DNA of 64,000 nt from Mesorhizobium sp. SARCC-RB16n (GTDB taxonomy: Bacteria; Pseudomonadota; Alphaproteobacteria; Rhizobiales; Rhizobiaceae). The stretch is taken from the NCBI RefSeq assembly GCF_008520305.1, contig NZ_ML703280.1, positions 26,154-90,153 of the forward strand, written 5' to 3'. The notes under the pieces are model-generated. The model was not told where the DNA came from, did not search any database, and saw only the letters and a program-made list of their open reading frames with translations. A program made the position numbers and the translations under genes. Below, piece after piece: positions 5,060 to 59,211 of the stretch; positions within the stretch are counted from its first letter, which is position 1; each line of letters starts with the position of its first letter.

Positions 5060-6025
5060 ATGCATCCGAGACTGCTCAAGACCTTCCTCGCGGTGGCGCG
5101 GAGCCGCAACATCACGCGCGCCGCCGAGACTGTTCATCTCGCCCAGTCGAGCGTCAGCGACCAGATCCAGTCGCTGGAGGCAGAGTTGGGTGCGGCCTTG
5201 TTCATCCGCTCGAAGTCGGGGCTGGACCTGACACCGGCGGGACTGGCACTGAAGCCCATCGCCGAAGAACTGCTGCGGCTCGATGGCGAGGCGCGCGCGG
5301 CGGTGCTGCTGGCTGCCGGGCAGATCGGTGGAACGCTGAGCATCGGCGCGCTGGAGACGATCGCGTCGGCCCGGCTGGCGCCTTGGCTGCCGGGGTTCCA
5401 GGCCAGTCATCCCGACATCGCCGTGCGGATGAAGGTGGCCGACAGCGGCACGCTGCTGCGCCAGCTGGAGGACGGCGAAATCGATGTCGCCTTCTGTTTC
5501 GGCCGCGATGTCTCGAATGGCGGCACCGATCAGCGCTTCGCCAGGCACACGATAGCGGCCGAACCGCTGGCGCTGGTCGCCGCGCCGGGGCAGAACTTGG
5601 CTCCGTGCGATCTGGCCGCCCTTGCCGCAAAGCGCTTCGTGGCGACGGAGCCCGGATGCGTCTACCGGCATATGTTCGACACCGCCTTTGCCGAAGCGGG
5701 CATCGGTGCGTCGGAACTTGCCGCCGAAGTCGGCAGCATCGGCGCCATTGCCCGGCTGGTGGCGGCCGGCGCGGGGTTGGGCCTCGTTCCACGTCTGGCC
5801 GTCATCGACGCGCTCGAGCGTGGTGAGCTCATCGAACTGCCGTGGCCTGGCCGAGCGCAAGTGGCGCCGCTGACGATGATCTGGCGCCGCCGGCGCGTCC
5901 GGCCGCCGGCGCTACGCCAACTGCTCGCCGCCGCGCGCGACACACTGGCGCCGCCGCGCTCCGGAACCGGCTCAGGATCTGAATCGGCGAACCGCTCCAA
6001 CGCCTTGTTTGCAAAGAATTCCTGA
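5060..6025 (+). CDS. LysR-family transcriptional regulator
   Basis: A 321-residue regulator with an N-terminal winged helix-turn-helix (residues 1-60: MHPRLLKTFLAVARSRNITR, AAETVHLAQSSVSDQIQSLE) and a periplasmic-binding-protein-like effector domain (about 90-290). The tail is basic and low in complexity. The ATG at 5060 is the usual LysR start, directly before the HTH; no strong ribosome site is visible, in line with coupling to the gene 11 bases upstream. The SDR gene downstream is convergent, so the target is uncertain. The effector is unknown. Confidence 0.85.
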   Translation: MHPRLLKTFLAVARSRNITRAAETVHLAQSSVSDQIQSLEAELGAALFIRSKSGLDLTPAGLALKPIAEELLRLDGEARAAVLLAAGQIGGTLSIGALETIASARLAPWLPGFQASHPDIAVRMKVADSGTLLRQLEDGEIDVAFCFGRDVSNGGTDQRFARHTIAAEPLALVAAPGQNLAPCDLAALAAKRFVATEPGCVYRHMFDTAFAEAGIGASELAAEVGSIGAIARLVAAGAGLGLVPRLAVIDALERGELIELPWPGRAQVAPLTMIWRRRRVRPPALRQLLAAARDTLAPPRSGTGSGSESANRSNALFAKNS

Positions 6026-6094
6026 CGGATGGCGCCGCTTACAGCATGTCGCTGCGAATAGAATTCGCCCGCCCTGCTGTAAGCTTCTGATTTT

Positions 6095-6144
6095 ATGTAT
6101 GTCGTTATCCCGGAACCGAGGACACTTCCGGGCGACATGCATTA
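6095..6144. repeat. Palindromic intergenic element
   Basis: Nested hairpin: ATGTATGTCG (6095-6104) pairs with CGACATGCAT (6133-6142) at nine of ten positions, and inside it CCCGGAA pairs with TTCCGGG. Its right 31 bases are repeated at 1-31. It lies between the convergent LysR and SDR genes, and its last bases provide the TAA stop codon of the SDR gene (6142-6144). Elements of this shape are very common between rhizobial genes and may end transcripts from both sides. Confidence 0.75.
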
Positions 6145-6870
6145 GACCAGGCGATGCCCGCCCTCGACATGCAGCGTCGTGCCGGTCGTAAAACCATTGC
6201 CCATGAGGAAGGCAATCGCGTCGGCGATATCACCCGGCTGGCCGATCCTGCCGACCGGCAGCCGCTCGGCCATCGCCGCAAGCGCCTCTGCCTTCCTGTC
6301 GCCCGCCACCTGCGCCCAAATCCCGGTGTCGACCCAGCCGGGCGAGACGGCGTTGACGCGGATTGGCGCGAGTTCTATCGCCAGCGCCCGCACCAGCCCT
6401 TCGAGCGCGGCATTTATCGCGGCGACGACCGAGCCGCGCGCGGCGGGCCGGTAGGCGGCGATGCCGGAGACGAAGGTCATCGAGCCGGCCACTGCCAGCC
6501 GTGGCGCGCCGTGCTTGGCAAGCAGCAACGGACCGAAGAGCTTGCTGTCGACCACGCGTTGCGCCGCTTTCAAGGCAAGCTCCGGCAACAGCCGGTAGGC
6601 GCCTTCGATGTCGGCGGCGGTGCTGAGGATATGGTCGAGGCCGCCGATCCCGGCGAACAATGCCGCGACCTGGTCTTCTCGCGTGATGTCGACAGCGGCC
6701 ATGTCCAGACCCGCGGGATTGCCCAGCGCCTCACGGGCCTGCCGCAACCTGTCCTCGCCGCGCCCGGCGATGACGACTTTGGCCCCGGCTTCGAGGCAGT
6801 GCCCTGCAAGCGCAAGACCCATGCCGGAGCCGCCGCCGACGATCAGGATTTTCTGATTCGAAATGCTCAT
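6142..6870 (-). CDS. Short-chain dehydrogenase/reductase
   Basis: A 242-residue SDR. The NAD(P)-binding loop is IVGGGSGMGLALA near the N-terminus, in place of the usual TGxxxGIG. The C-terminal PIRVNAVSPGWVDTGI and FTTGTTLHVEGGHRLV segments are standard. At the expected catalytic site the sequence reads SGIAAYRPAARGSVVAAINA: Tyr is present but the Lys four residues on is Arg, so catalytic competence is uncertain. The ATG at 6870 follows AAGGCAGAG. The frame is open further upstream, but that part has no homology and overlaps the neighbouring repeat. Substrate unknown. Confidence 0.8.
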   Translation of the reverse strand: MSISNQKILIVGGGSGMGLALAGHCLEAGAKVVIAGRGEDRLRQAREALGNPAGLDMAAVDITREDQVAALFAGIGGLDHILSTAADIEGAYRLLPELALKAAQRVVDSKLFGPLLLAKHGAPRLAVAGSMTFVSGIAAYRPAARGSVVAAINAALEGLVRALAIELAPIRVNAVSPGWVDTGIWAQVAGDRKAEALAAMAERLPVGRIGQPGDIADAIAFLMGNGFTTGTTLHVEGGHRLV

Positions 6871-38592: not shown

Positions 38593-38921
38593 CGCAGCCT
38601 CCGATTTCCATTTCCGAGCATTCTCGGCAGGGTGTGACGGCGGCGGCTGCGTTCCGCGATGCCGCAGCCAAACGGGAAATGCCATTCAAGCGTCCGGAGC
38701 ATCGAGCTGCTCATGGCGACCAGGCCTGACCAAGTCCGCCTTTCGCGGCCTGGTCTTGGGAGCAAGGCGTATTTTGCCTTGCCAGGCATCATCTCACGGC
38801 GGCCGGCTCACGTCCCCCTTCATAGTGATGAAGACAGCTGCATTTGCGATGCCTCGATGTCGGTCCGGCGGCGGCCATGCCGAATATATCGGATGCACCG
38901 GGCAGGAGGCGTGGGAGGGCG

Positions 38922-39173
38922 ATGACGCACATCCTGGCCAAGGAACTTGGCGCGCGCCGGATCACTGTCAACGCGGTGGCGCCCGGACCGGTCGAGACGG
39001 CGCTGTTCACGGACGGCAAGAGCGCCGCGCAGATCGAGGCCATCGAAAAAATGATCCCGCTCGGCCGCCTTGGCCAGCCCGACGACATTGCCGGCCTAGT
39101 CTCGTTTCTGGCCGGGCCGGACAGTGGCTGGGTCAATGGACAAATCATCCGCGCCAATGGCGGCGTGATCTGA
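38922..39173 (+). pseudogene. Fragment of a short-chain dehydrogenase (C-terminal third)
   Basis: The 83 residues AMTHILAKELGARRITVNAV, APGPVETALFTDGKSAAQIE and FLAGPDSGWVNGQIIRANGG are the end of a 3-oxoacyl reductase-type SDR. The cofactor loop and the catalytic Tyr-x-x-x-Lys are absent, and the upstream DNA (38690-38920) does not encode them in any frame I could follow. A GGAGG-like tract precedes the ATG, so a peptide could still be made. Most probably a deletion remnant. Confidence 0.7.
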
Positions 39174-43771: not shown

Positions 43772-44872
43772 ATGCCAAACCTCAAAGATGCAACCCGCGC
43801 CGCCGATACCGCCTGGCAGGACGATGTCCGCGCCGGCGTTCGCCATGTGCGCGACCTCGCCTCCCTGCCGCTTTTGGCGGCCGAACGCGAAGCCGCGCAA
43901 GCTGCCGCCACGCTCCACAAGGTGCGCGCGCCAAAAAGCTATCTCGACCTGATCGACTGGAACGATCCCGCCGATCCGATCCGGGCGCAGGTGATCCCGT
44001 CGCCTGAGGAGATGGAGGAGGCGGAGGGCGAGCTTGGCGACCCGATCGCCGATCACGAATTCAGCCCGGTGCCCAGGCTGACGCATCGCCATGCCGACCG
44101 GGTGCTTTTGTTCCCGACCTATCAATGCGCGGTCTATTGCCGGTTCTGCTTCCGCAAGGAATCGCTGACTTCGATCGGCCGTGGCTATACGCGCGAGGCG
44201 CTGGAGCCGGCGCTGGCCTATATATCAGGCCACTCCGAAATCCGCGAAGTGATCCTGACCGGCGGCGATCCGCTGTCGCTGCAAGATACGGCACTTGCCG
44301 AAATCCGCGCCCGCATCGAGGCTATCCCCCATGTGCGGCTCTTGCGCATCCACACGCGCGTGCCGGTGGCGTTGCCTTCGCGCATCACGCCAGGGCTGGT
44401 CGCGGCGCTGCAGGGCCGGCTGATTGTGACTGTGGTTACCCACTTCAACCACGCGCGCGAGATCACCGATGCCACCGAAGCGGCTTGTCGCACCTTGCGG
44501 CAGGCGGGCTTCGTGCTGCTCAACCAGAGCGTTCTCTTGAAGGGCGTCAACGATAGCGTCGAGGTGCTGGAAGAACTCTGCCGCGAACTGATGTACCGGC
44601 TTGGGATAAAACCCTACTACCTCCACCATGGCGACCTCGCGCGCGGCATGGCGCACCGGCGCACGACCATCGCGCAGGGCCAGGCGCTGGCCGAAGCGCT
44701 GCGGTCCCGCCTGTCGGGCATCTGCAATCCGGTCTATGTGCTGGACCTGCCGGCAGGGGGAGGGAAGGTGCCGCTCGGACCTTGCCATGTCGAGGGACAG
44801 GACGGGCAGAGCTGGCGTATACGCGGGCTGGATGGGGAGGTGAGGACCTATCGGGAAGTGGTTGGCGAATAG
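43772..44872 (+). CDS. kamA: L-lysine 2,3-aminomutase (radical SAM, PLP)
   Basis: A 366-residue radical-SAM enzyme. The CX3CX2C cluster motif is Cys119, Cys123, Cys126 (YQCAVYCRFCFRKES). By motif position, Asp288 (HHGDLARG), Asp325 and Lys332 (VLDLPAGGGK) align with the clostridial residues that bind the lysine side-chain amine (two Asp) and PLP (Lys). EpmB lacks the Asp-Lys block, so this looks like a true KamA making L-beta-lysine rather than an EF-P modifying enzyme. It lacks the about 50-residue Cys-rich tail of the 416-residue clostridial enzyme. Convergent, seven bases from the PPTase gene. Confidence 0.82.
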   Translation: MPNLKDATRAADTAWQDDVRAGVRHVRDLASLPLLAAEREAAQAAATLHKVRAPKSYLDLIDWNDPADPIRAQVIPSPEEMEEAEGELGDPIADHEFSPVPRLTHRHADRVLLFPTYQCAVYCRFCFRKESLTSIGRGYTREALEPALAYISGHSEIREVILTGGDPLSLQDTALAEIRARIEAIPHVRLLRIHTRVPVALPSRITPGLVAALQGRLIVTVVTHFNHAREITDATEAACRTLRQAGFVLLNQSVLLKGVNDSVEVLEELCRELMYRLGIKPYYLHHGDLARGMAHRRTTIAQGQALAEALRSRLSGICNPVYVLDLPAGGGKVPLGPCHVEGQDGQSWRIRGLDGEVRTYREVVGE

Positions 44873-44879
44873 CCAATGC

Positions 44880-45524
44880 CTATCTTGCAACAAACGCCAG
44901 CACGACCACGCGCGGGGCAACGCAGTATGTGAGCCGCGCCTTGCGGCCGCTCCTCGTCGTTGCGTGGCCGGTCTCGAGGTCCACGGTGATGTCCTCGTAG
45001 CCCAGCACCTCGCGATCCAGCGGATAGGCGGCCTTGTAGACCGCTTCCTTGGCCGCGAAGAGGATGCGGCCGGCGAGCTGCCGGTTGGCTGCACCTATCC
45101 GGTCGGCGGGAATGGCAACGAGGGCGGAAATCTCGTCGGGCAGGGGCAACGCCGGCTCGACATCGATACCGAGCGAGCCGATGCCGGCAACGGGCGCGAC
45201 CGCCGCCACGGCCATGTCGTCATCATGCGCGAGCGAGCCCGTCATCCCCTCTGGCCAGGCGGGTGCACCGGACGGCGTGCGCAACAGGGCGAAACCGTCG
45301 AAGCCGGCATCCGCCAGCAGCCGGTGCGCGATCCAGCGCGCCGCGCCGCTGGCCCGCCGCATGGCAGGCTGGCGGGCAGGGATGGAGCCTGCCTCCGCCG
45401 GCAGCAGATGGGCCTCGTCACCTTCGCGGATCAGCCGGCAACCTATGCGGACCCCGGCCGGGGCCATGGCGGCCATGGCGCGCGTCAGCGCGATTTCCTC
45501 GGATAGATCGGCGGGCGGTGTCAT
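44880..45524 (-). CDS. 4'-phosphopantetheinyl transferase
   Basis: A 214-residue EntD/Sfp-type enzyme. Motifs are SLAHDDD (97-103), GIDVEP (119-124, metal-binding Asp and Glu) and FAAKEAVYKA (156-165). It moves the 4'-phosphopantetheine arm of CoA onto a carrier-domain serine. As last gene of the operon with an NRPS-like protein whose carrier serine is visible, it is the obvious activator. The start overlaps the stop of the acetyltransferase gene by four bases. Confidence 0.9.
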   Translation of the reverse strand: MTPPADLSEEIALTRAMAAMAPAGVRIGCRLIREGDEAHLLPAEAGSIPARQPAMRRASGAARWIAHRLLADAGFDGFALLRTPSGAPAWPEGMTGSLAHDDDMAVAAVAPVAGIGSLGIDVEPALPLPDEISALVAIPADRIGAANRQLAGRILFAAKEAVYKAAYPLDREVLGYEDITVDLETGHATTRSGRKARLTYCVAPRVVVLAFVAR

Positions 45525-45997
45525 CGATTGCCGGCCGGGAGGACGAGGTCGGCGATCATTTCGCCGTCCTCGTCGAGCCCTTCCTCGACGAAACCGGCGC
45601 TGCGATAGAGTCGCCGTGCCGCTTCGTTCTCCGGTTCGTAGCAGATCGACACGTGCCTGATGTGGCCGAGCCCGCGGATTTCCTCCAGCACCGCCCGCAG
45701 CGCGGCCTTGCCATAGCCCCGGCCCTGCCAGGCGCGGTCGATCATGAAGCGGTAGATGCGCGCCTCGTCATCGTCGCGCGGCGCCTCGTACATCAGGAAC
45801 CCGACGAGCTGGTCCCCGGCCATCACGGCGCGCGGCCGCGCGTCCCGATCGGACCCGGCTTCACGCAGGGAGTCTGCATTGCTGGCGACGAAATCCATCT
45901 GCTCCGGAGCCAGTTGCAGGGCCGTGACCAGGGCTCGATTGGCCTTGGTCACGGGAGCGATACGGATGTCCCCGGTGCCAGGTGCGCGGTCCGTCAA
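45521..45997 (-). CDS. GNAT-family N-acetyltransferase, BltD/PaiA-like
   Basis: A 158-residue single GNAT domain. The acetyl-CoA loop is RAWQGRGYGKAALRAVLEEI; the APEQMDFVASNADSLREAGS and CYEPENEAARRLYRSAGFVE segments resemble polyamine acetyltransferases such as BltD. A cationic acceptor is therefore plausible. Its start overlaps the stop of the NRPS-like gene and its stop overlaps the PPTase start, so the three genes are translated as a unit. The true acceptor is unknown. Confidence 0.85.
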   Translation of the reverse strand: MTDRAPGTGDIRIAPVTKANRALVTALQLAPEQMDFVASNADSLREAGSDRDARPRAVMAGDQLVGFLMYEAPRDDDEARIYRFMIDRAWQGRGYGKAALRAVLEEIRGLGHIRHVSICYEPENEAARRLYRSAGFVEEGLDEDGEMIADLVLPAGNR

Positions 45998-48900
45998 GAC
46001 GCCGATGCCCGGGAGCCGTCGCTGATCGGCTCCACGAACCGATGCAGCTTGGCTGGGTTGCCGCGCCAGATGGAGTTGGGCTCCAGCTCTTCGCCCTTCA
46101 TCACGAAGGCGTCGGCATCGACCATCGAGCCTTCACCCATCACGACGCCGTAGTGGACGAAGGCGGAGGGCCCGAGCGTGCAGCCCCTGCCGATGCGGAT
46201 GAAGTCCGACTTGAACGCACCTTCTTCCAGGGAGTGGGCCTGGATGACCGATCCCTCGTTGAGCGTGACGTCGTCACCGATCTCGACCAGGGAACGCTCG
46301 GTCAGGTTGCTGCCGCCGTCATAGACGCGCTTGCCCACCTTGACGCCCAGCATGCGCAGGATCATCGGCCGGAACGGCGTGCCGCTGAACAGGCGCACGA
46401 TCGGCGAATCCGCGAGTTTCCAGTGGCGTTCGTGGCGCCAGAAGGTGACGTCGTAGATCGTCGTTATCTGCGGCTTCAGCTTGCGAAAACCAAGGCTTGC
46501 CCGCTCGACGAAGATGTAGAACGGAATGGTGATCGCCGAGGTCAGAAGCACCGCCACGAAGAGGGCGATTTCCGCCCATTCGGTATAATAGTTCAGCGCC
46601 CGGTCCCAGATCGCCAGCGTGGCGAACAGCATGACCCATTGCGTCGCCACGAACAGGATGATCGTCACCAGATTGTGGAGGTTCTTGAGCGGGATACGCT
46701 TGCGCCGGTCTTCCTCGTCGATGCCGGCGATGAGTTCCTTGTCGCGATTCACCATCCGTGGGATTTCAAAGGGCGGCGAACCCAGAAGGCCGACATTCTC
46801 GCGCACCGGTCCGTCGATGGGAACCATCACCTTGGTGCCGAGCAGGACGTTGTCGCCCGTGCGTCCATCCGGCGGATAGTAGATGTTGTTGCCGAGATAG
46901 TTGCGCTCGCCGATCCGCGTCGGCTCGAGCCGGAATGCGGAAGCGGACTTGTGCATGTTGATCATGAAAAGCCCGTCCGACACCATGGTCTGGGTGCCGA
47001 TCTCGCACAGGAGCGGGTTTTCGTGCTGCTGGTTGGAGCCGAAATTGGAACCGGTCTGTACCACCTTGTTGAGGTTCCAGCCGATGGCGCTCATATAATG
47101 GACGATGGCCGAGCTGTCGCCGAACAGCAGCCCGAGCACGCGGGAGTTGCTCGAGAACTGGGCAACCGTCTGCAGCCAATAGCGGAAGCCGTAGAGCGTG
47201 TAGGTGCGGCCGGGTTTCAGGATCAGGCTGAACAGGCGCGGCACCACCGTGGCGGCGAGGAAGGCCACGGCGATGTAGCCGAAAAGCGTGACCGTGGTGC
47301 CGATCGCCACAATGCCGATCGTCTCCTGATAGTCGTCGCCGACATTCTCCCAATAGCTGTGGAACAGAAGCGGCAGCGGGGTGACGATGGCAAACAGGCC
47401 CATCAGCTGCACGGCTTCGTAGAGGAAGCGCCGGATACGGGGAGGATTGACATTGCGCACCTTGCAATAATCCGCCGTGGTCGGCACCGCCGGCGATCCA
47501 TGCCAGTGTTCGCCGTCCGGGATGCTTTGCCCGCGCTGCAGCGAGGAGGAATGTCCGAGCTGGCCGTCGTCGCCGATCGCGGTGTCGATGTCGAGCGTGC
47601 AGCCGACGCCCACGAAGGCATCGCGGCCGATGGTCAACGGCCCGGTGTGGATATAGCCGGCCTGGGCGCGATAGCCGAGGATCAGCGATTCCTTGCGCAG
47701 GATGGTTCGGTCGCCGATCGAAATCAGGTCCGTGCACACGGGCACGGCACGGGATTCGATGACCACGTTCTTCCCTATCCTGGTTCCCAGGAGCTGCAGA
47801 TACAGGCTGTAGAGCGGGCTTCCGCGGAACAGGACGACGGGTGCGGAGCGGATCAGGGTCTTGACGACCCAGAAGCGATAGTAGCGCAGGCCCCAGATCG
47901 GGAACGCTTCCGCCTTCCAGCGGCCGACCAGCACCCATTTGGCGAGAACGGCAAAGCCCGACATGCCGAAGAATACGCCGCCCGAGAGCACCACGCACCT
48001 GACATAAAGCTGAAGCGGATCGTCGAGCGCGTCATAGACCCAGTTGAGGCCGCCGTTGATCGCCCACAATGCCACGTAGCTGTAGGTTGCGTAAAACAGC
48101 AACTGCGCCGCGCCGCAGGTCCAGTAGACGAGGTCGGATGTCCGACGGGTGAGAACAGGCTCGTTGGTGGCCGTCGTCATCTCTTCCGCCGCGCTCAGGT
48201 GCTTGGCCAGGCGCGCCACGGTCGGATAGAGATAGATGTCGCGCATCGACGTCGTCGCCCATTCCTTGCGGGTACGCACTCGGGCGCAGAAATGCGCCAT
48301 GAGCAGCGAGTTGGCGCCGAGATCGTCGAAGAAATTGTCCTCGACGGACACGTCGTCGAATTTCAGCACGGCGCATAGCGCGTCGGCCAGGAAACGCTCG
48401 TCGTCATTGCCGGGCGGCACCATGGCGCGGTCGGCCGAAAGCCGGACGCTCGTCGGTTTGGGAAGCTGGCGAAGGTCGACCTTGTTGGAGACCGTCATCG
48501 GGATCGCCGGCAGTTCCTCCAGGTAGGAGGGCACCATGTAGTCCGGCAGCCGCCGCTTCATCGTCTGGGCAATGTCGGCGCGCGAGAGCGCCGGCTGGCC
48601 GGCCTTGGGCGCGTAATAGGCAACAAGCTCGACGCGGCCGGGCTCGATCTCCCAGGTGGTGACGGCGGCCTGCGCGATCCCAGGCTGGTCCAGCAACACG
48701 GCCTCGATCTCGCCGAGTTCGATGCGATAGCCGCGGATCTTCACCTGGGTGTCGATGCGCCCGGCATACTCGATCTCGCCGGCATCGTTGATCCGGCCAA
48801 GGTCGCCGGTGCGGTAGATGCGCTTCGACGGGTTGTTCGGCAGGCCGAGGAAATCGGCAATGAACTTCTGTTCGGTCAGGTCCGGCCTGTTGAGATAGCC

Positions 48901-50103
48901 GACGGCGAGCCCAATGCCGGCAATGCCGATCTCGCCCAGTTCGCCGGGTTCGGCAAGTTGCGGCAGCGAAGGGTCGAGAATGGCGATGGAATAGGTGGGC
49001 AGCGGCGCGCCGATCGTTACCGGCCTGTCCGGCGTCAGCGCACCCATGGTTGCCGTGACGGTCGCCTCGGTCGGGCCATAGGTGTTGAGGATCTGCCGGC
49101 CGGGCTTCGACCAGCGCACCACCAGATTGTGGGGGCAGGCCTCGCCGCCCACCAGCAAGGTGCGCAGGCTAGGCACGTCCGATGTCATGGACGACAGAAG
49201 CGTCGGGCTGCAGGCCATGCAGGTGATGTCGTGATGGCGCAGGAAATCGGCGAGTTCTTCGCCCACCAGTGGCATCTGGCCCGGTGCTGGCACGACGGTC
49301 GCGCCGGCGACGAACGGCACCCAGATCTCTTCGGACGAAAAGTCGAAGGCGATGGTCATGCCCTGGTAGACGCGGTCGCCCGGCTGGTAGCCGTAGGACG
49401 CGGCGGCGACGCGGATGAAGTTGACGAAGCTCTGGTGGCGGATGGCCACGCCCTTCGGGCGGCCGGTGGTGCCCGAGGTGTAGAGGATGTAGCAGATGTC
49501 GTCGGCTGGAGTGGGCGCCTTGTGCGGCTTCAGCGGCGCGCTGGATTGTTTGGCGATCTCGGCGGAAGCGCTGTCGATCAACAGGTGGGGAACGGGCAGT
49601 TGACCGGCCCGCGATGCATAGGTGGCAATGGTGACGATCAGGCTGACGCTGGCGTCTTCGATGATGAGCGCCATGCGCTCTTCAGGAAACGCGGTGGCCA
49701 GCGGCACGAAGGCGGCACCCGCCTTCACCACGGCGAGCAAGGCAACATAAGTCTCGGCGGACCGGTCGAGAATGAGGCCGACCCGGTGACCCGGTTGCAC
49801 GCCGCGCTTGACCAGCAGGCGGGCGAACTGGTTGGCGCGCTTGTCCAGCTCCTGATAGGTCCAGGTGCGGCCCTCGGAGATCACCGCCGGCAGCGTGGCG
49901 AATGTTTCGGCGAGTTGCTCGAAGACCTTGTCCAGCCGCTCGTCCGGCTGACCTGCCCGCGCAAAATCGGCGCCCGTCAGAACCTGCGGGTGCGCGAGCA
50001 GTTCGAGGCCGGGGGCGATCTTGACAAGCGCTTCGCCCATTTCGGGCCGGACAGGTCTTGCCTCGTCCCTGCCACATTCGGCAATATCCGCACCGTGGTC
50101 CAT
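45994..50103 (-). CDS. Membrane NRPS-like protein of the Pls/PosA type
   Basis: A 1369-residue protein. Adenylation domain about 50-550: ILYTSGTTGRPKG (206-218), NTYGPTE (340-346), YRTGDLG (430-436), and Lys541 in TVSNKVDL. Carrier domain about 560-640 with Ser599 in DDLGANSLL. The rest alternates three membrane pairs (about 660-725, 895-955, 1140-1200) with three soluble blocks containing hexapeptide (left-handed beta-helix) repeats (about 778-870, 1030-1110, 1250-1345). This is the layout of epsilon-poly-lysine synthetase, which polymerises basic amino acids. No condensation or thioesterase domain. The ATG at 50103 is preferred to a TTG at 50196. Confidence 0.85.
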   Translation of the reverse strand: MDHGADIAECGRDEARPVRPEMGEALVKIAPGLELLAHPQVLTGADFARAGQPDERLDKVFEQLAETFATLPAVISEGRTWTYQELDKRANQFARLLVKRGVQPGHRVGLILDRSAETYVALLAVVKAGAAFVPLATAFPEERMALIIEDASVSLIVTIATYASRAGQLPVPHLLIDSASAEIAKQSSAPLKPHKAPTPADDICYILYTSGTTGRPKGVAIRHQSFVNFIRVAAASYGYQPGDRVYQGMTIAFDFSSEEIWVPFVAGATVVPAPGQMPLVGEELADFLRHHDITCMACSPTLLSSMTSDVPSLRTLLVGGEACPHNLVVRWSKPGRQILNTYGPTEATVTATMGALTPDRPVTIGAPLPTYSIAILDPSLPQLAEPGELGEIGIAGIGLAVGYLNRPDLTEQKFIADFLGLPNNPSKRIYRTGDLGRINDAGEIEYAGRIDTQVKIRGYRIELGEIEAVLLDQPGIAQAAVTTWEIEPGRVELVAYYAPKAGQPALSRADIAQTMKRRLPDYMVPSYLEELPAIPMTVSNKVDLRQLPKPTSVRLSADRAMVPPGNDDERFLADALCAVLKFDDVSVEDNFFDDLGANSLLMAHFCARVRTRKEWATTSMRDIYLYPTVARLAKHLSAAEEMTTATNEPVLTRRTSDLVYWTCGAAQLLFYATYSYVALWAINGGLNWVYDALDDPLQLYVRCVVLSGGVFFGMSGFAVLAKWVLVGRWKAEAFPIWGLRYYRFWVVKTLIRSAPVVLFRGSPLYSLYLQLLGTRIGKNVVIESRAVPVCTDLISIGDRTILRKESLILGYRAQAGYIHTGPLTIGRDAFVGVGCTLDIDTAIGDDGQLGHSSSLQRGQSIPDGEHWHGSPAVPTTADYCKVRNVNPPRIRRFLYEAVQLMGLFAIVTPLPLLFHSYWENVGDDYQETIGIVAIGTTVTLFGYIAVAFLAATVVPRLFSLILKPGRTYTLYGFRYWLQTVAQFSSNSRVLGLLFGDSSAIVHYMSAIGWNLNKVVQTGSNFGSNQQHENPLLCEIGTQTMVSDGLFMINMHKSASAFRLEPTRIGERNYLGNNIYYPPDGRTGDNVLLGTKVMVPIDGPVRENVGLLGSPPFEIPRMVNRDKELIAGIDEEDRRKRIPLKNLHNLVTIILFVATQWVMLFATLAIWDRALNYYTEWAEIALFVAVLLTSAITIPFYIFVERASLGFRKLKPQITTIYDVTFWRHERHWKLADSPIVRLFSGTPFRPMILRMLGVKVGKRVYDGGSNLTERSLVEIGDDVTLNEGSVIQAHSLEEGAFKSDFIRIGRGCTLGPSAFVHYGVVMGEGSMVDADAFVMKGEELEPNSIWRGNPAKLHRFVEPISDGSRASAS

Positions 50104-50706: not shown

Positions 50707-50928
50707 ATGACCAAGCTCGCTCTCAGCGTGGCCGCGATGTTGCTTGCCTCGAGTTCCGCCTTTGCCGGCAGCGACCATTTCGACACCCGCGCCACCGACC
50801 AGACGCGCGCCACCGTCGACAACACATACACCGCCTCGACCGCCAAGACGGACGTGGTCCGCCATGGCATGCAGGCGGCGATGAAATCCGATGCGGACGA
50901 ACCAGGCCAAGGCATCTGGGGCAACTGA
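50707..50928 (+). CDS. DUF680 family secreted protein
   Basis: A 73-residue protein with signal peptide MTKLALSVAAMLLASSSAFA and a mature chain starting GSDHFDTRATDQTRATVDN, the GSDH opening that marks DUF680. The family is known almost only from Mesorhizobium, so this gene is the best genus marker in the window. AAGGA eight bases upstream fixes the start. Function unknown, periplasmic or secreted. Confidence 0.85.
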   Translation: MTKLALSVAAMLLASSSAFAGSDHFDTRATDQTRATVDNTYTASTAKTDVVRHGMQAAMKSDADEPGQGIWGN

Positions 50929-51052
50929 GTTCAGGGGTTCGGACCACCTTCGAGGTCCTGACCCCGTCCGCGATCAGGACGGAGGGCCATGTGGCGTGGC
51001 TCTCCGTCACCAGCGCCGCCACCGCCACCGCCACCCCATAGGAGAATACGCC

Positions 51053-52024
51053 ATGTTCAGCATGTCACGCCGCACAGTGCTTCAATCCGCCGCCGCCGCT
51101 GCCGCTTTCGGCCTTGCCGGCAAGCTTGAGTTCACCCGGCCCGCCTTCGCGCAGACGCCGCTGGAACCCGCCGTCGGCTTCTACAAATACACGGTTGGCG
51201 ACATCGAGGTCACCGCCGTCTATGACGGCATCTGGAAGAAGCCGCACGACCCGGCCTTCATCAAGGACGTCTCCGTCGACGACACCAAGGCCGCTCTCGC
51301 CAAGGCGGGGCTGACCACCGACTTCATGCCCATTCCGCTCACCGTCGCCGTGCTCAAGATGGGCGGCAGGCTGATCATGATGGATGCGGGCTCCGGCGTC
51401 GGCCAGTGGCAAGCCAACGCCACGCATCTGCCGGCCAACATGGCCGCCGCCGGCATCGACTACAAGGCGATCGACACCATCATGATCTCGCATTTCCACC
51501 CCGACCATGTCTGGGGCCTGATGGAGAAGGGCACCAACACGCCGGTGTTCCCCAATGCCGAGCTGATCGTCAACGCCACCGAATATAGCTGGTGGACCGA
51601 TCCCGCCCGTCTGGCCAAGCTGCCCGAGGGCCGCAAGCCGGCGGGCAAGCGCATCGCCGAAAACTTCCCGAAATGGAAGAACTGGAAGCTGGTCGAGGAC
51701 GGCGCCGAGGTCGCGCCCGGCATCCAGATCATCGGTGCACCCGGCCATACGCCCGGCCATTCCGTCTATCTCGCCAATTCCGGCAAGGAGCAGCTGATGA
51801 TCTCGGCCGACACCATGTATGTGCCGGCTCTGCTGGCGCCGCATCCGGAATGGCAGGGCAGCTACGACCAGGACGGGCCGACGGCGATCGCCACGCGCCA
51901 CAAGATCATCGACCGGGTGATCGCGGACAACATCCGCATCTCCGGTTCGCACTTCCCGTTCCCAGGCACCGGCGTCTTCGTGAAAGACGGCAATGCCTAT
52001 GGCTTCACTCCGGTCCAAATTTGA
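51053..52024 (+). CDS. MBL-fold metallohydrolase, Tat-exported
   Basis: A 323-residue metallo-beta-lactamase-fold protein. The N-terminus carries a twin-arginine signal (MSRRTVLQSAAAAAAFGLAG). The dinuclear metal site begins with HFHPDH (His147 to His152), continued by GAPGHTPGHSVYL and SADTM. Similar exported proteins act as lactonases or general hydrolases; the substrate is unknown. AGGAGAA precedes the ATG at 51053. The stop codon lies within a long fold-back repeat. Confidence 0.87.
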   Translation: MFSMSRRTVLQSAAAAAAFGLAGKLEFTRPAFAQTPLEPAVGFYKYTVGDIEVTAVYDGIWKKPHDPAFIKDVSVDDTKAALAKAGLTTDFMPIPLTVAVLKMGGRLIMMDAGSGVGQWQANATHLPANMAAAGIDYKAIDTIMISHFHPDHVWGLMEKGTNTPVFPNAELIVNATEYSWWTDPARLAKLPEGRKPAGKRIAENFPKWKNWKLVEDGAEVAPGIQIIGAPGHTPGHSVYLANSGKEQLMISADTMYVPALLAPHPEWQGSYDQDGPTAIATRHKIIDRVIADNIRISGSHFPFPGTGVFVKDGNAYGFTPVQI

Positions 52025-53539: not shown

Positions 53540-54139
53540 GTGAAAGCGATTTTGGCACTGGTTAGCGGCTTCGTCTTGACGCTTGCGGTCTTCGGCAGTG
53601 GGCTGGGTTTTGCCGCTTGGCTGCTGGCCGCCAAGTCCCCGCATGAGGCAAGGCCGACCGTCAGCGTGGCCGAGCTGTGGACCAGGGACGCGCGGCCGGT
53701 GAACAAGGCGGCGCAAAATCTCCAGCGCCTGCCGGCGGACCAGCCCGCGCCGCCCGATCCCGTGGCCAAGGTCCAGGCACCTGACCCGACCGCGACCGGC
53801 TCGATCGCGCCGGCGACTGGAGCCGACGCGCTGCCGGCGTCCCATCTCCAGTGGTGCGCCGACCACTACCGCTCCTACCATCCCGACGACAACAGCTACA
53901 TGTCCTATAGCGGACGGCAGCGCCCCTGCGTCTCGCCCTATCTCGACGCCGGCGCCGACCAGGGTACGCAGCCTACGGCGGCGGTCAGCTATGCCGAGAC
54001 GGGCGACGCCGCTTCGGCCGCCACGACGGGACTTTCGGCCGACCATGTCGATTCCTGCTTCAGCCGCTACCGCTCCTACCGGCCTGAGGACAACAGCTAC
54101 CAGCCATATTCCGGCGGACCCAGGCGCCAGTGCGAGTAG
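53540..54139 (+). CDS. BA14K family protein with duplicated domain
   Basis: A 199-residue exported protein from a GTG start, with AAGGAG in front. An N-terminal membrane or signal helix (LALVSGFVLTLAVFGSGLGF) is followed by a Pro/Ala-rich linker and two BA14K motifs: WCADHYRSYHPDDNSYMSYS and CFSRYRSYRPEDNSYQPYSG. BA14K in Brucella is a lectin-like immunoreactive protein; carbohydrate binding is plausible. Two copies in one chain is unusual. Confidence 0.8.
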   Translation: MKAILALVSGFVLTLAVFGSGLGFAAWLLAAKSPHEARPTVSVAELWTRDARPVNKAAQNLQRLPADQPAPPDPVAKVQAPDPTATGSIAPATGADALPASHLQWCADHYRSYHPDDNSYMSYSGRQRPCVSPYLDAGADQGTQPTAAVSYAETGDAASAATTGLSADHVDSCFSRYRSYRPEDNSYQPYSGGPRRQCE

Positions 54140-56286: not shown

Positions 56287-58944
56287 TTATAGCGATGCCA
56301 AAGACAACCATATCCCAGGCAGCATAAGCCGCTGTCCATTTTTTAACTGCAGTATTCGGGAATTCTCGCCGCTATATAGTCCAAAATCTACGTTGCCGCC
56401 TTCGAAGACTAGGTGCTTGCCTTTTGATTTAGCGTAGCGACCAAGGCATCCGATGAAGCTTAATGGCGCAGGCTTACTATCTTCTGGTAATACCCAATAT
56501 GCTTGAGTGCCGGCGGTATCACCTGCAAGAAGGACATTTTTCAAGGTAACTTCAACTTCGTCCTCGGGAATAACAAATCCAGAACTATGGTTTACCGTGC
56601 CCATAATTGCCCATTGATCACGCTGATGATCAGCTGGTTTGATGGGTGCGTAAATCAACTCATTCGCCAAAAGTTTTTCGAAGACATCAGCAACCGTCAA
56701 CCACTCATTGTCCACGAGGCAATTTGCGATGGCCAAAGGGTCGCCGCCGAAATGTGCGGCGTGTGCCGAGATGAAATTGCGCTCGCGAGCGTCAATGTCA
56801 GTGGCAAGCCATTTTTTGACTTGGCCAGTCGCCCATTGCTCGATGACAGGCCGCGACAGCAAGTCGCCAGAATCGCGTCGAGGTCCGCGCGGTGACAGGT
56901 CCAAACAGCCAACGAATTGCCTTCCATGGTCGACATGACCCTGTTTTTTCTTACCGAGCCCTCCAATTGTGTATACAGAAAGCTTGGCGCCAGACGGATT
57001 CAAAGATGCGCGTCCAATTATTTGCCCGTCGAAAATTATAGGTTCGATTATTTCTAAATTTTCTATAATAGCTTCAGGAATATCCTTTGTTTTTACGCCA
57101 TTAATTCTCTGAAGCCAATTTTGGCCGTTTTCTTCTACCCAATTAGATGCGATTTTATGAATTTCTTCGTCAGGATCTTGTTTGATAAAAATATCAACAT
57201 CGATCGCTGGGCATAGCATTTCGACGAGTTCAGGAAGAGTAAACTTCGTAGCGGGTCGCAAGTAAGATTTTCCGTCTTCGTACACCTGCGTCTGGTTGTC
57301 TCGATGCAGGATCTTGTCTTTCGTATCTGACGAGACAAAAATATCGACTACGGTAGAATAACTCATCTGGAAGTCTGAGGCGCCTTCCTTAACGATCGGA
57401 CGCAACGCTAAGCCGGAACTGAAACTGAGCGTTCGTACCGCTGAAGATCCGGCGTCAAACGGTCGCGTGGTTACGTTGATTTCTTGGCTGATCATGAAGA
57501 CCGAGAAAAAACCAATTCCAAAACGGCCAATCTTCTTGAAATGACTCCCGAGGAAACCCGGGCGCTCCTCCCGCAATGTCCAAGACGACCAACCGCTTTC
57601 GCCGAAAGCTAAGAAAGGCCCTGTCAAAACCGCAGACGACATACCGATACCGTTGTCTGCCACTCGCAACCAATAACCATTTTCCCCCGATTCATTCTGA
57701 CCTGGCCGAAGGTCGATCATTAGCTTGCCGGCGAACTCACTTTCCAAAACCCTACGCGCTCTAACGGCGTCGACGGCGTTTTGTATCAATTCTCTCAGGG
57801 GGACGGTGTCGTCGTCTCCGTATAGTCCTCTGCCGCCGAACATTTGCACTATCTTGCCGGTGTCGTTGATCCGTACCTCTGCGTCGATAGGAACCCATCC
57901 GTCGGTTTGAACGTGCTTTGAAAAACGCCTAGGGTCAGAAATATCCTTAACTCTCGTGATTTCGAACGGCGGTAGGGAGGCATCACGGAGGACTTGGTCA
58001 GAGGCGCGTAATTCGCGATCAGCGGTGTTCGCGAGATCGAAAGCAATCCACCAAGCTCTCGCTTCCTTCTCATTAAATGGCACGGAGCTGGTGACCATGA
58101 GCGCACTGGGGTCTTGGGAGTCAGGCGCAATGGACAATCGATTCTGGGCGGTCCAGTGGTCGAGGGAAGCTCCTTCAGGTTGAAGCAGGGCAAACTCGAA
58201 ATCCGGTGCACGCGCAGCATCGATTTGAATCGCGTCGGCTGTTCGTATCAAAGCTGCAAGTACCATTGGACGAATTAGTCCGCGCTTATGATAAGGAGGA
58301 ATAGGATTCTTCTGGCGCCCCAGGGATTCCAGCTTTGAGATGCTCCAGTGGTGGCTTGCTGCAATTTCGCCAATTAGCGGGCCGAAATGAGATCGGACCG
58401 TCGGGTCGTCAAGAAGGTAAAAATCGGCGCCAAGTACCGGGTGTTTAAATGTGGCGCTGAGAATGTTTTTTGCCTGCCGCGCGTGCAGCGCTCTCAGCAC
58501 ATCGAACAACACAGCCTTTCTCAGCCCAATGGATAGAGTCGCAAGGTCGTCGTTCCTATTACTTTGATCCCCCTGCATCTTGGAGGCAAGCGCATCCTTC
58601 CATTCCGGTGTCTTGATTAGGGTCCGTATCCCGCCTTCGAAGGCAAGGACGGTATGGGCTGCGTCATGAATAAGGATCGCGATACCGAAGATGAACGTTT
58701 CGATTGGCGACAGCTTGTATTTCTTTCCAACAATGATGTCAGCGCATTCCCATAGGCGTGTAAAGTGAGCCTCATCATGTAGCGTCAAGCCCTCCGCATC
58801 CGCTGCGATACGCTTTGCGAGCGAACACGCGCGTTCCCAAGCAACTGAATACATTTCAACAAGATGGGTGGTCGCTTCATCATCGTCGGCGATCTTTCCA
58901 AAGGATGCGCGCCATAGCTGCGTTTTTTCGTAGGGTTTTGGCAT
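56287..58944 (-). CDS. HD domain fused to Hsp90-like ATPase
   Basis: An 885-residue protein. The N-terminal part (about 50-245) has HD-superfamily features: LHDEAH (55-60), IHDAAH (92-97), EIAASHHW (193-200), LIRTADAIQ (232-240). About 350-550 is a GHKL ATPase of Hsp90 type: ELIQNAVDA (385-393), VADNGIGM (428-435), GRFGIGFFSVFM (473-484). The last 300 residues have no known domain. AGGAAG just before ATG 58944. Codon use is AT-richer than both neighbours, and it is alone on its strand, signs of transfer. Role unknown; stress or phage defence are possibilities. Confidence 0.75.
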   Translation of the reverse strand: MPKPYEKTQLWRASFGKIADDDEATTHLVEMYSVAWERACSLAKRIAADAEGLTLHDEAHFTRLWECADIIVGKKYKLSPIETFIFGIAILIHDAAHTVLAFEGGIRTLIKTPEWKDALASKMQGDQSNRNDDLATLSIGLRKAVLFDVLRALHARQAKNILSATFKHPVLGADFYLLDDPTVRSHFGPLIGEIAASHHWSISKLESLGRQKNPIPPYHKRGLIRPMVLAALIRTADAIQIDAARAPDFEFALLQPEGASLDHWTAQNRLSIAPDSQDPSALMVTSSVPFNEKEARAWWIAFDLANTADRELRASDQVLRDASLPPFEITRVKDISDPRRFSKHVQTDGWVPIDAEVRINDTGKIVQMFGGRGLYGDDDTVPLRELIQNAVDAVRARRVLESEFAGKLMIDLRPGQNESGENGYWLRVADNGIGMSSAVLTGPFLAFGESGWSSWTLREERPGFLGSHFKKIGRFGIGFFSVFMISQEINVTTRPFDAGSSAVRTLSFSSGLALRPIVKEGASDFQMSYSTVVDIFVSSDTKDKILHRDNQTQVYEDGKSYLRPATKFTLPELVEMLCPAIDVDIFIKQDPDEEIHKIASNWVEENGQNWLQRINGVKTKDIPEAIIENLEIIEPIIFDGQIIGRASLNPSGAKLSVYTIGGLGKKKQGHVDHGRQFVGCLDLSPRGPRRDSGDLLSRPVIEQWATGQVKKWLATDIDARERNFISAHAAHFGGDPLAIANCLVDNEWLTVADVFEKLLANELIYAPIKPADHQRDQWAIMGTVNHSSGFVIPEDEVEVTLKNVLLAGDTAGTQAYWVLPEDSKPAPLSFIGCLGRYAKSKGKHLVFEGGNVDFGLYSGENSRILQLKNGQRLMLPGIWLSLASL

Positions 58945-59211
58945 AGCTTCCTGCTTAAGCAAAATTCCGAGTCGCAAAGCCGTTGTACAATAGATTTTTC
59001 TCCTAACAACCGAACGGAACTATGAAAAACGGGATTCGTAAGCGGCTAGCTAGTTTTTAAGCGACTAAGTTGGCGTTACGTCGGCTGTGGCGAACCGCTG
59101 CGGGCACGCCCGTCCGAAAACTTCAACTTCTACCGTCATAGAATGAAGCCGAATTCCCCCTAGGGTGGTGCCAGAAAATAGGCTTCCAACGCTTATCTCA
59201 CCCCCTCCGCA

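What the first reader, a model, noticed from the sequence alone, without database searches (positions are those of the whole stretch)
43772..50103. Lysine 2,3-aminomutase next to a Pls-type NRPS, acetyltransferase and PPTase: possible beta-lysine polymer or conjugate pathway
Seen: kamA runs head-on into a three-gene operon with four-base overlaps encoding a membrane NRPS-like protein (A, carrier, three beta-helix blocks between membrane pairs), a BltD-like acetyltransferase and a PPTase. Known: Pls-type synthetases make epsilon-poly-L-lysine and related polycations; KamA makes beta-lysine; N-acetyl-beta-lysine is an osmolyte. Inference: the locus makes poly-beta-lysine, an acetylated derivative, or attaches beta-lysine to an envelope component. 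I know of no rhizobial product of this kind. KamA is on the other strand, so it may be only a neighbour.
Basis: partly seen in the sequence, partly recalled or inferred. Interest (0 to 1): 0.8.

Follow-up and report, generated by a model that had tools for sequence, protein, structure and literature searches.

The report
Polycation synthetase operon beside unrelated kamA
A rhizobium carries a known type of enzyme that strings one small two-amine amino acid into a positively charged polymer, and the beta-lysine-type gene beside it is most likely an unrelated neighbour rather than its supplier.

Summary
The anatomy is as described: kamA converges on an operon NRPS-GNAT-PPTase with four-base overlaps. 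The NRPS is a Pls/PosA-family homopolymer synthetase (TIGR02353, 927 bits, cut-off 423). The beta-lysine reading is not supported. (1) Its A-domain code is DFEALGTVTK; the published beta-lysine synthetase code is DGESISVVNK, and Phe at position 2 marks the published diaminobutyrate/diaminopropionate synthetases. The code is DFEA(L/M)G(T/S)(V/I)TK in all 86 rhizobial rows read. (2) kamA lies near the operon only in Mesorhizobium (31 of 37 loci; 0 of 43 others). Of 146 genus genomes, 52 have KamA without the NRPS and 4 the NRPS without KamA. (3) In 16 genomes lacking the operon kamA is intact, in 8 of them with a gene from the operon's far side now under 200 bp away. KamA looks like a genus-wide gene, perhaps serving EF-P, though it scores below every specific KamA model's cut-off. 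The operon probably makes a poly-diaminobutyrate- or poly-ornithine-type isopeptide; the GNAT resembles polyamine acetyltransferases. The monomer is unresolved: related synthetases sit beside ectB or dat, yet 21 of 29 rhizobial genomes have neither. New member of a known kind.

The parts
45994..50103 (-). Pls/PosA-family NRPS, 1369 aa: A domain, carrier domain, terminal membrane domain
   Evidence: TIGR02353 927.4 bits, cut-off 423.1; Pfam AMP-binding and PP-binding; orthologues in 80 genome loci
48481..49923 (-). adenylation domain (AMP-binding plus C-terminal subdomain), specificity code DFEALGTVTK
   Evidence: Pfam ranges shifted by 31 residues to the ATG start; code by alignment
48196..48393 (-). 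carrier (PP-binding) domain; attachment Ser599 in the motif DDLGANSLL
   Evidence: Pfam PF00550; motif and serine
46051..48120 (-). Pls/PosA terminal domain with membrane segments and three soluble blocks; hexapeptide similarity in blocks 1 and 3
   Evidence: TIGR02353 range, hydropathy, profile search of PDB sequences
45521..45997 (-). GNAT acetyltransferase, similar to BltD-type spermine/spermidine acetyltransferases
   Evidence: PF00583; 9dsb and 2fl4, E 3.7e-18 and 4.3e-18; next to the NRPS in 61 of 80 genome loci
44880..45524 (-). 4'-phosphopantetheinyl transferase, expected to activate the carrier domain
   Evidence: 4PPT_N and ACPS; next to the operon in 73 of 80 genome loci
43772..44872 (+). 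divergent KamA-family radical SAM protein; neighbour, judged not to be part of the operon's pathway
   Evidence: TIGR00238 284 bits, cut-off 199; below the cut-offs of TIGR03820, TIGR03821 and TIGR03822; distribution
53540..54139 (+). BA14K-family gene that flanks kamA directly in several genomes lacking the operon (marks the empty site)
   Evidence: PF07886; kamA to this gene under 200 bp in 8 of 16 loci without the NRPS

Best explanation
Genes 45994-50103, 45521-45997 and 44880-45524 form an operon for a cationic homopolymer of the Pls/PosA kind. The PPTase loads phosphopantetheine on Ser599 of the carrier domain (inferred from family). The A domain activates a short-chain L-diamino acid, most likely 2,4-diaminobutyrate, with ornithine next and 2,3-diaminopropionate third (inferred from the code and the tree). 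The membrane-bound terminal domain joins the units through side-chain amines (inferred from characterised relatives) into an isopeptide chain. The GNAT probably acetylates free amines of the product or monomer, as a cap or for self-protection (inference from its likeness to polyamine acetyltransferases). kamA is a resident gene of the genus beside which the operon happens to lie. Its own role is probably to make beta-lysine or beta-lysyl groups for something else, with EF-P the best candidate.
For: Family: TIGR02353 more than twice its cut-off. Code DFEALGTVTK; Asp and Glu at positions 1 and 3 as in all cationic homopolymer synthetases, Phe at position 2 as in PDAP/PDAB synthetases (PMC10522769, Results parts 1-3 of 4 and Discussion; codes). 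The position mapping is checked by L090 giving DMEHNGTVTK and L089 DLEDIGTVVK, near the published PosA and 'Rhizobia' codes. Tree: the rhizobial clade is sister (support 1.0) to Skermanella/Paenarthrobacter synthetases; the two Skermanella ones lie just downstream of ectB, and next out is a Streptomyces synthetase in a run with a diaminobutyrate transaminase and aspartate kinase. kamA independence: near the operon in 31 of 37 Mesorhizobium loci but 0 of 43 others; 52 of 129 KamA-bearing genus genomes lack the NRPS; 29 NRPS copies of a second lineage in the genus are not near kamA on any shared contig; empty sites. The NRPS occurs with no KamA in M. soli, two Phyllobacterium and two Brucella/Ochrobactrum genomes. 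EF-P link: outside Mesorhizobium 12 of 12 genomes with a KamA at 45% identity or more have it within 1.6 kb of epmA, and efp lies beside epmA.
Against: Monomer: diaminobutyrate transaminase/EctB is found in only 8 of 29 NRPS-bearing genomes and SbnA over cut-off in 0 of 29, one at 349.7 against 349.95, so no dedicated diaminobutyrate or diaminopropionate supply is seen in most; this favours ornithine. The rhizobial code differs from the ectB/dat-linked code (DFECLSVVTK, DFECLSAVTK) at positions 4, 6 and 7. kamA: within the genus KamA and NRPS are positively associated (odds ratio 4.8, p 0.008), although this comes from 11 small genomes lacking both; without them the counts are 77, 4, 52 and 2. 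45 of 53 copies of the main NRPS lineage lie within 5.5 kb of kamA. EF-P role: Mesorhizobium KamA is below the cut-offs of EpmB and AblA_like_2, and 13 genus genomes have EpmA without KamA.
Confidence: 0.6

Rival explanations
1. The synthetase uses L-ornithine and makes a delta-poly-L-ornithine-type polymer (PosA-like) with a Phe instead of Met in the pocket.
For: Ornithine is a universal metabolite, and no dedicated precursor gene travels with the operon (one search shows no conserved neighbour of known role beyond GNAT and PPTase); 21 of 29 genomes lack diaminobutyrate transaminases. Code positions 6-8 (G, T, V) match PosA.
Against: Phe at the position that sets chain length is reported for the shorter monomers (PMC10522769); in the tree the PosA-like L090 is far from the rhizobial clade.
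Confidence: 0.25
2. One reading: KamA supplies beta-lysine and the NRPS polymerises it or attaches it to the envelope.
For: Adjacency in Mesorhizobium (31 of 37 loci; 45 of 53 main-lineage copies). NRPSpredictor2 once named beta-lysine for the diaminopropionate synthetase of S. albulus, whose A domain showed weaker adenylation with beta-lysine (PMC4668381, passages), so some activity is conceivable.
Against: Code unlike DGESISVVNK; same code where no KamA exists; KamA without NRPS in 52 of 129; genes on opposite strands; empty sites with kamA kept.
Confidence: 0.04
3. KamA and the GNAT together make the osmolyte N-acetyl-beta-lysine (AblA/AblB type), the NRPS being separate.
For: KamA and a GNAT gene lie within about 1.1 kb.
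Against: AblB (TIGR03827) was found in 0 of 11 Mesorhizobium genomes, with the control ringing in 4 of 14 named genomes; the GNAT overlaps the NRPS and occurs in 26 of 43 loci outside Mesorhizobium with no kamA nearby; KamA is below the AblA cut-off, 305 against 525.
Confidence: 0.03
4. The synthetase activates 2,3-diaminopropionate and makes a PDAP-type polymer.
For: Phe at position 2 is shared by PDAP and PDAB synthetases (PMC10522769).
Against: SbnA family over cut-off in 0 of 29 genomes; related synthetases are linked to diaminobutyrate genes.
Confidence: 0.12

Closest known systems
Poly-diaminobutyrate (PDAB) synthetases; here the ectB-linked Skermanella and dat/aspartate-kinase-linked Streptomyces synthetases (assignment by gene neighbours, not by assay)
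   Same: same domain order, DFE code start, nearest clades in the tree
   Different: the rhizobial operon has no precursor gene, a different pocket at positions 4, 6 and 7, and a GNAT plus its own PPTase
PosA, delta-poly-L-ornithine synthetase of Acinetobacter baumannii (PMC10522769)
   Same: A-T-terminal domain; Asp/Glu anchor residues; Gram-negative host
   Different: PosA is a single-gene operon by that paper; code DMEHNGTVSK against DFEALGTVTK
epsilon-Poly-L-lysine synthetase Pls (S. albulus)
   Same: same family and architecture
   Different: Ala rather than Phe at position 2 (PMC10522769)
epsilon-Poly-L-beta-lysine synthetase (Streptoalloteichus hindustanus, as cited in PMC10522769)
   Same: same family
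   Different: code DGESISVVNK; the window code shares only D, E, V and K positions
EpmA/EpmB EF-P beta-lysylation; AblA_like_2 KamA beside epmA in other Rhizobiales
   Same: KamA family; one KamA and one EpmA in most Mesorhizobium genomes
   Different: window KamA scores 353 bits on AblA_like_2 against 558-579 for four epmA-linked ones, and is not beside epmA
BltD-type spermine/spermidine acetyltransferase (9dsb, 2fl4)
   Same: nearly full-length similarity
   Different: encoded inside a polymer-synthetase operon; substrate untested

Membership tests
Pls/PosA cationic homopolymer synthetase | terminal domain TIGR02353 above curated cut-off | tested here: met
   927.4 bits, cut-off 423.1
Pls/PosA cationic homopolymer synthetase | A domain plus carrier domain, no classical condensation or thioesterase domain | tested here: met
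   Pfam scan lists only AMP-binding, AMP-binding_C, PP-binding and hexapeptide families
Pls/PosA cationic homopolymer synthetase | membrane segments separating three soluble blocks | tested here: inconclusive
   three hydrophobic clusters by hydropathy, first cluster without a clear pair; fold not predicted
Pls/PosA cationic homopolymer synthetase | Asp and Glu at code positions 1 and 3 | tested here: met
Pls/PosA cationic homopolymer synthetase | makes an isopeptide homopolymer | not testable with these tools
   needs enzyme assay or LC-MS
epsilon-Poly-beta-lysine synthetase | code DGESISVVNK | tested here: not met
   DFEALGTVTK
epsilon-Poly-beta-lysine synthetase | beta-lysine supply (KamA) tied to the synthetase | tested here: not met
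Poly-diaminobutyrate synthetase | Phe at code position 2 | tested here: met
Poly-diaminobutyrate synthetase | diaminobutyrate transaminase with the synthetase or in the genome | tested here: not met
   not beside it in 80 loci; in the genome in only 8 of 29
EpmB (EF-P beta-lysylation) | TIGR03821 above cut-off | tested here: not met
   273.3 against 369.3 bits
EpmB (EF-P beta-lysylation) | genome also has EpmA and a lysine-bearing EF-P loop | tested here: met
   close relatives only: EpmA in 126 of 129 KamA-bearing genus genomes; HPGKGTP loop in 4 of 4 Mesorhizobium loci read; the window's own genome is not held
Lysine 2,3-aminomutase AblA | TIGR03820 above cut-off | tested here: not met
   304.7 against 525.4 bits

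The most novel reading that the evidence does not exclude
The DFEALGTVTK clade of Rhizobiales makes a cationic isopeptide not yet described: a homopolymer of a short diamino acid from a source other than the known EctB/Dat or SbnA routes, partly N-acetylated by the BltD-like GNAT encoded in the same operon, and widely spread on rhizobial chromosomes and plasmids.
Probability: 0.2. Interest if true: 0.6.

Novelty: new member of a known kind. Interest (0 to 1): 0.35.

Why it matters
Characterised enzymes of this family come from actinomycetes and one Acinetobacter (PMC10522769). Here a well-bounded operon, in 81 of 146 Mesorhizobium-genus genomes and in other plant-associated Rhizobiales, poses a concrete question: which diamino acid does it polymerise, and does it matter in soil or nodules? 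It also warns that gene adjacency within one genus can suggest a pathway that distribution outside the genus does not support.

Tried and rejected
Beta-lysine polymer: rejected on code and distribution. N-acetyl-beta-lysine osmolyte: AblB in 0 of 11 genomes. A precursor gene in the neighbourhood: ORF clustering of 55 loci gave no conserved neighbour beyond GNAT and PPTase apart from antisense ORFs, genes shared only among Mesorhizobium, and a generic ABC-transporter-like cluster; a class-III aminotransferase upstream of the NRPS in L053, L055 and L076 fits no diaminobutyrate model (L053 scanned: TIGR00709 229 against 401.6 bits). Strict EpmB identity of KamA: I first took the co-occurrence in 29 genomes as near proof, but the family scan and the genus table weakened it. 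Literature: six searches were answered; the only listed paper joining such synthetases with rhizobia is PMC10522769, whose supplementary table could not be read here, so I do not know whether this clade is listed there. Only PMC10522769 was read in sections (Results parts 1-3 of 4, Discussion); PMC9606270 and PMC4668381 in passages; all other papers only as search listings with abstract beginnings. Rows dropped: L007, L091 and L095 had no full-length A-domain ORF and were left out of the code table and tree; L002, L039 and L086 were left out of the tree as repeats or near-repeats, and L156 because its ORF is broken.
Full report
Observation. The NRPS, GNAT and PPTase run on the minus strand with TTGA and ATGA overlaps, and kamA converges on them with seven bases between its end and the PPTase stop codon. 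The NRPS matches TIGR02353 (Pls/PosA family) at 927 bits against a cut-off of 423. Pfam finds AMP-binding, its C-terminal subdomain, a carrier domain and hexapeptide repeats, and no condensation or thioesterase domain. Hydropathy shows three hydrophobic clusters; hexapeptide similarity is seen for the first and third soluble blocks, not the second. The fold could not be predicted.

Source. The window's genome is not held. The closest locus found is Mesorhizobium sp. ES1-4 (terminal domain 97%; whole NRPS 95%, kamA 92%), so the window is most likely Mesorhizobium.

Specificity. I mapped the ten code positions by alignment; the mapping uses recalled gramicidin-synthetase numbering and is checked because L090 and L089 give codes close to the published PosA and 'Rhizobia' codes. 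The window reads DFEALGTVTK. Of 94 rows read, 86 are rhizobial and all are DFEA(L/M)G(T/S)(V/I)TK; two of the 86 repeat another record (L039 repeats L008, L086 repeats L002). Skermanella and Paenarthrobacter read DFECLSVVTK, a Streptomyces plasmid synthetase DFECLSAVTK and a Rhodococcus one DFEYLGTVTK. Patel and Gulick (PMC10522769; Results parts 1-3 of 4 and Discussion) report Phe at position 2 for diaminopropionate/diaminobutyrate synthetases, Met for ornithine, Ala for lysine, and DGESISVVNK for the beta-lysine synthetase. The window is therefore of the short-chain type and unlike the beta-lysine type. PMC4668381 (passages) adds a caution: NRPSpredictor2 called a diaminopropionate synthetase beta-lysine-specific, and the assay showed otherwise, with weaker activity on beta-lysine.

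Tree and neighbours. In a FastTree of 94 sequences the rhizobial clade (86 tips, support 1.0) is sister to Skermanella plus Paenarthrobacter (joint support 1.0), and next out are the Rhodococcus and Streptomyces synthetases. Both Skermanella synthetases lie just downstream of ectB, and the Streptomyces one is followed by a diaminobutyrate transaminase and an aspartate kinase. None is annotated beside the Paenarthrobacter or Rhodococcus ones. So the relatives on either side point to diaminobutyrate. Against this, diaminobutyrate transaminase/EctB was found in the same 8 of 29 NRPS-bearing genomes by two searches, and SbnA over cut-off in 0 of 29 (one at 349.7 against 349.95). The monomer is therefore open: diaminobutyrate first, ornithine second.

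Operon conservation. In 80 genome loci the GNAT follows the NRPS in 35 of 37 Mesorhizobium-labelled loci and 26 of 43 others, and the PPTase in 36 of 37 and 37 of 43. A well-supported group of 17 tips (Rhizobium, Shinella, Pleomorphomonas and others) lacks the GNAT, except that its member L004 is a plasmid locus where neither GNAT nor PPTase was found. The GNAT's best solved relatives are spermine/spermidine acetyltransferases, which fits acetylation of a polycation or its monomer but does not prove it.

kamA. In the same 80 loci kamA lies somewhere in the locus in 31 of 37 Mesorhizobium-labelled loci, within 2.6 kb in 28; of the six without it two are cut by contig ends. It is in 0 of 43 others, 39 of which have at least 7.5 kb downstream; one of these, L016, sits inside the main Mesorhizobium clade of the tree. 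In 146 genomes of the genus KamA is in 129, the NRPS in 81 and EpmA in 139. The KamA/NRPS table is 77 both, 4 NRPS only, 52 KamA only, 13 neither (odds ratio 4.8, p 0.008). That is a positive association, but 11 of the 'neither' genomes are small (3.3-4.8 Mb); without them the table is 77, 4, 52, 2. Of 53 copies of the main NRPS lineage, 45 lie within 5.5 kb of kamA, 4 are 265 kb to 4.2 Mb away, 3 are on another contig and 1 genome has no KamA. By comparing the lists, of the 29 copies of the second lineage (73-76% identity) 5 share a contig with kamA at megabase distance, 21 are on other contigs (fragmented assemblies, so adjacency across contig ends is not formally excluded) and 3 genomes have no KamA; the four such loci fetched show no kamA.

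Empty sites. I fetched the kamA region of 16 genus genomes without the NRPS. All keep an intact-looking kamA at 82-89% identity; in 14 the BA14K gene that lies beyond the operon in the window is found nearby, in 8 of them under 200 bp from the end of kamA. In two others, L139 and L145, the lactonase and TPR genes are present but not the NRPS. The operon is thus gained or lost beside a kamA that stays.

What KamA does. In 12 of 12 genomes outside Mesorhizobium with a KamA at 45% identity or more, it lies within 1.6 kb of epmA (11 within 110 bp), and efp lies beside epmA. The five genomes of the 29 with no EpmA over cut-off also have no KamA match; one genome (G022) has EpmA but only a 34% KamA. 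In the 11 Mesorhizobium genomes of that set that have KamA, epmA and an EF-P with a lysine loop stay together while KamA is elsewhere. Window KamA is, however, a divergent form: 353 bits on AblA_like_2 (cut-off 396) against 558-579 for four epmA-linked ones, and only 1 of 146 genus genomes has an AblA_like_2 over cut-off. In the genus, 126 genomes have both EpmA and KamA, 13 EpmA only, 3 KamA only and 4 neither (p 0.004). I read it as a likely stand-in for EpmB, but this is an inference and the 13 EpmA-only genomes speak against a strict need. AblB is in 0 of 11 genomes tested, against the osmolyte idea.

Verdict. A new member of a known kind: a Pls/PosA operon in Mesorhizobium with unknown monomer. 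The reported kamA link is best explained as chance adjacency within one genus.

Noticed in passing
L127-L130, L131-L146; window 43772-44872: Mesorhizobium keeps efp-epmA but lacks the AblA_like_2 kamA found beside epmA in other Rhizobiales; a divergent KamA elsewhere may replace it.
   Followed up: partly
G038, G039, G055, G056, G083-G085, G087, G095, G141, G150: Eleven small genomes (3.3-4.8 Mb) placed in the genus have EpmA but no KamA match.
   Followed up: no
L053, L055, L076 around 5354-6571: A class-III aminotransferase lies upstream of the NRPS in three Rhizobium loci; the one scanned (L053) is below cut-off for diaminobutyrate transaminase models.
   Followed up: partly
G004 (L013, L032): Mesorhizobium comanense has two NRPS copies; the copy beside kamA has an internal TGA in the genome searched.
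   Followed up: no
L156 (G115): The second-lineage NRPS of this genome looks broken: longest A-domain ORF 529 aa.
   Followed up: no
window 38844-39173: Short ORF matching only the C-terminal part of a short-chain dehydrogenase model (positions 152-235 of 236), possibly a gene remnant.
   Followed up: no
window 50891-52024: Metallo-beta-lactamase-fold protein with resemblance to AidB quorum-quenching lactonases, 160 bits against a cut-off of 360.
   Followed up: no
window 56287-58977: HD-CE domain plus histidine-kinase-like ATPase domain in one protein.
   Followed up: no
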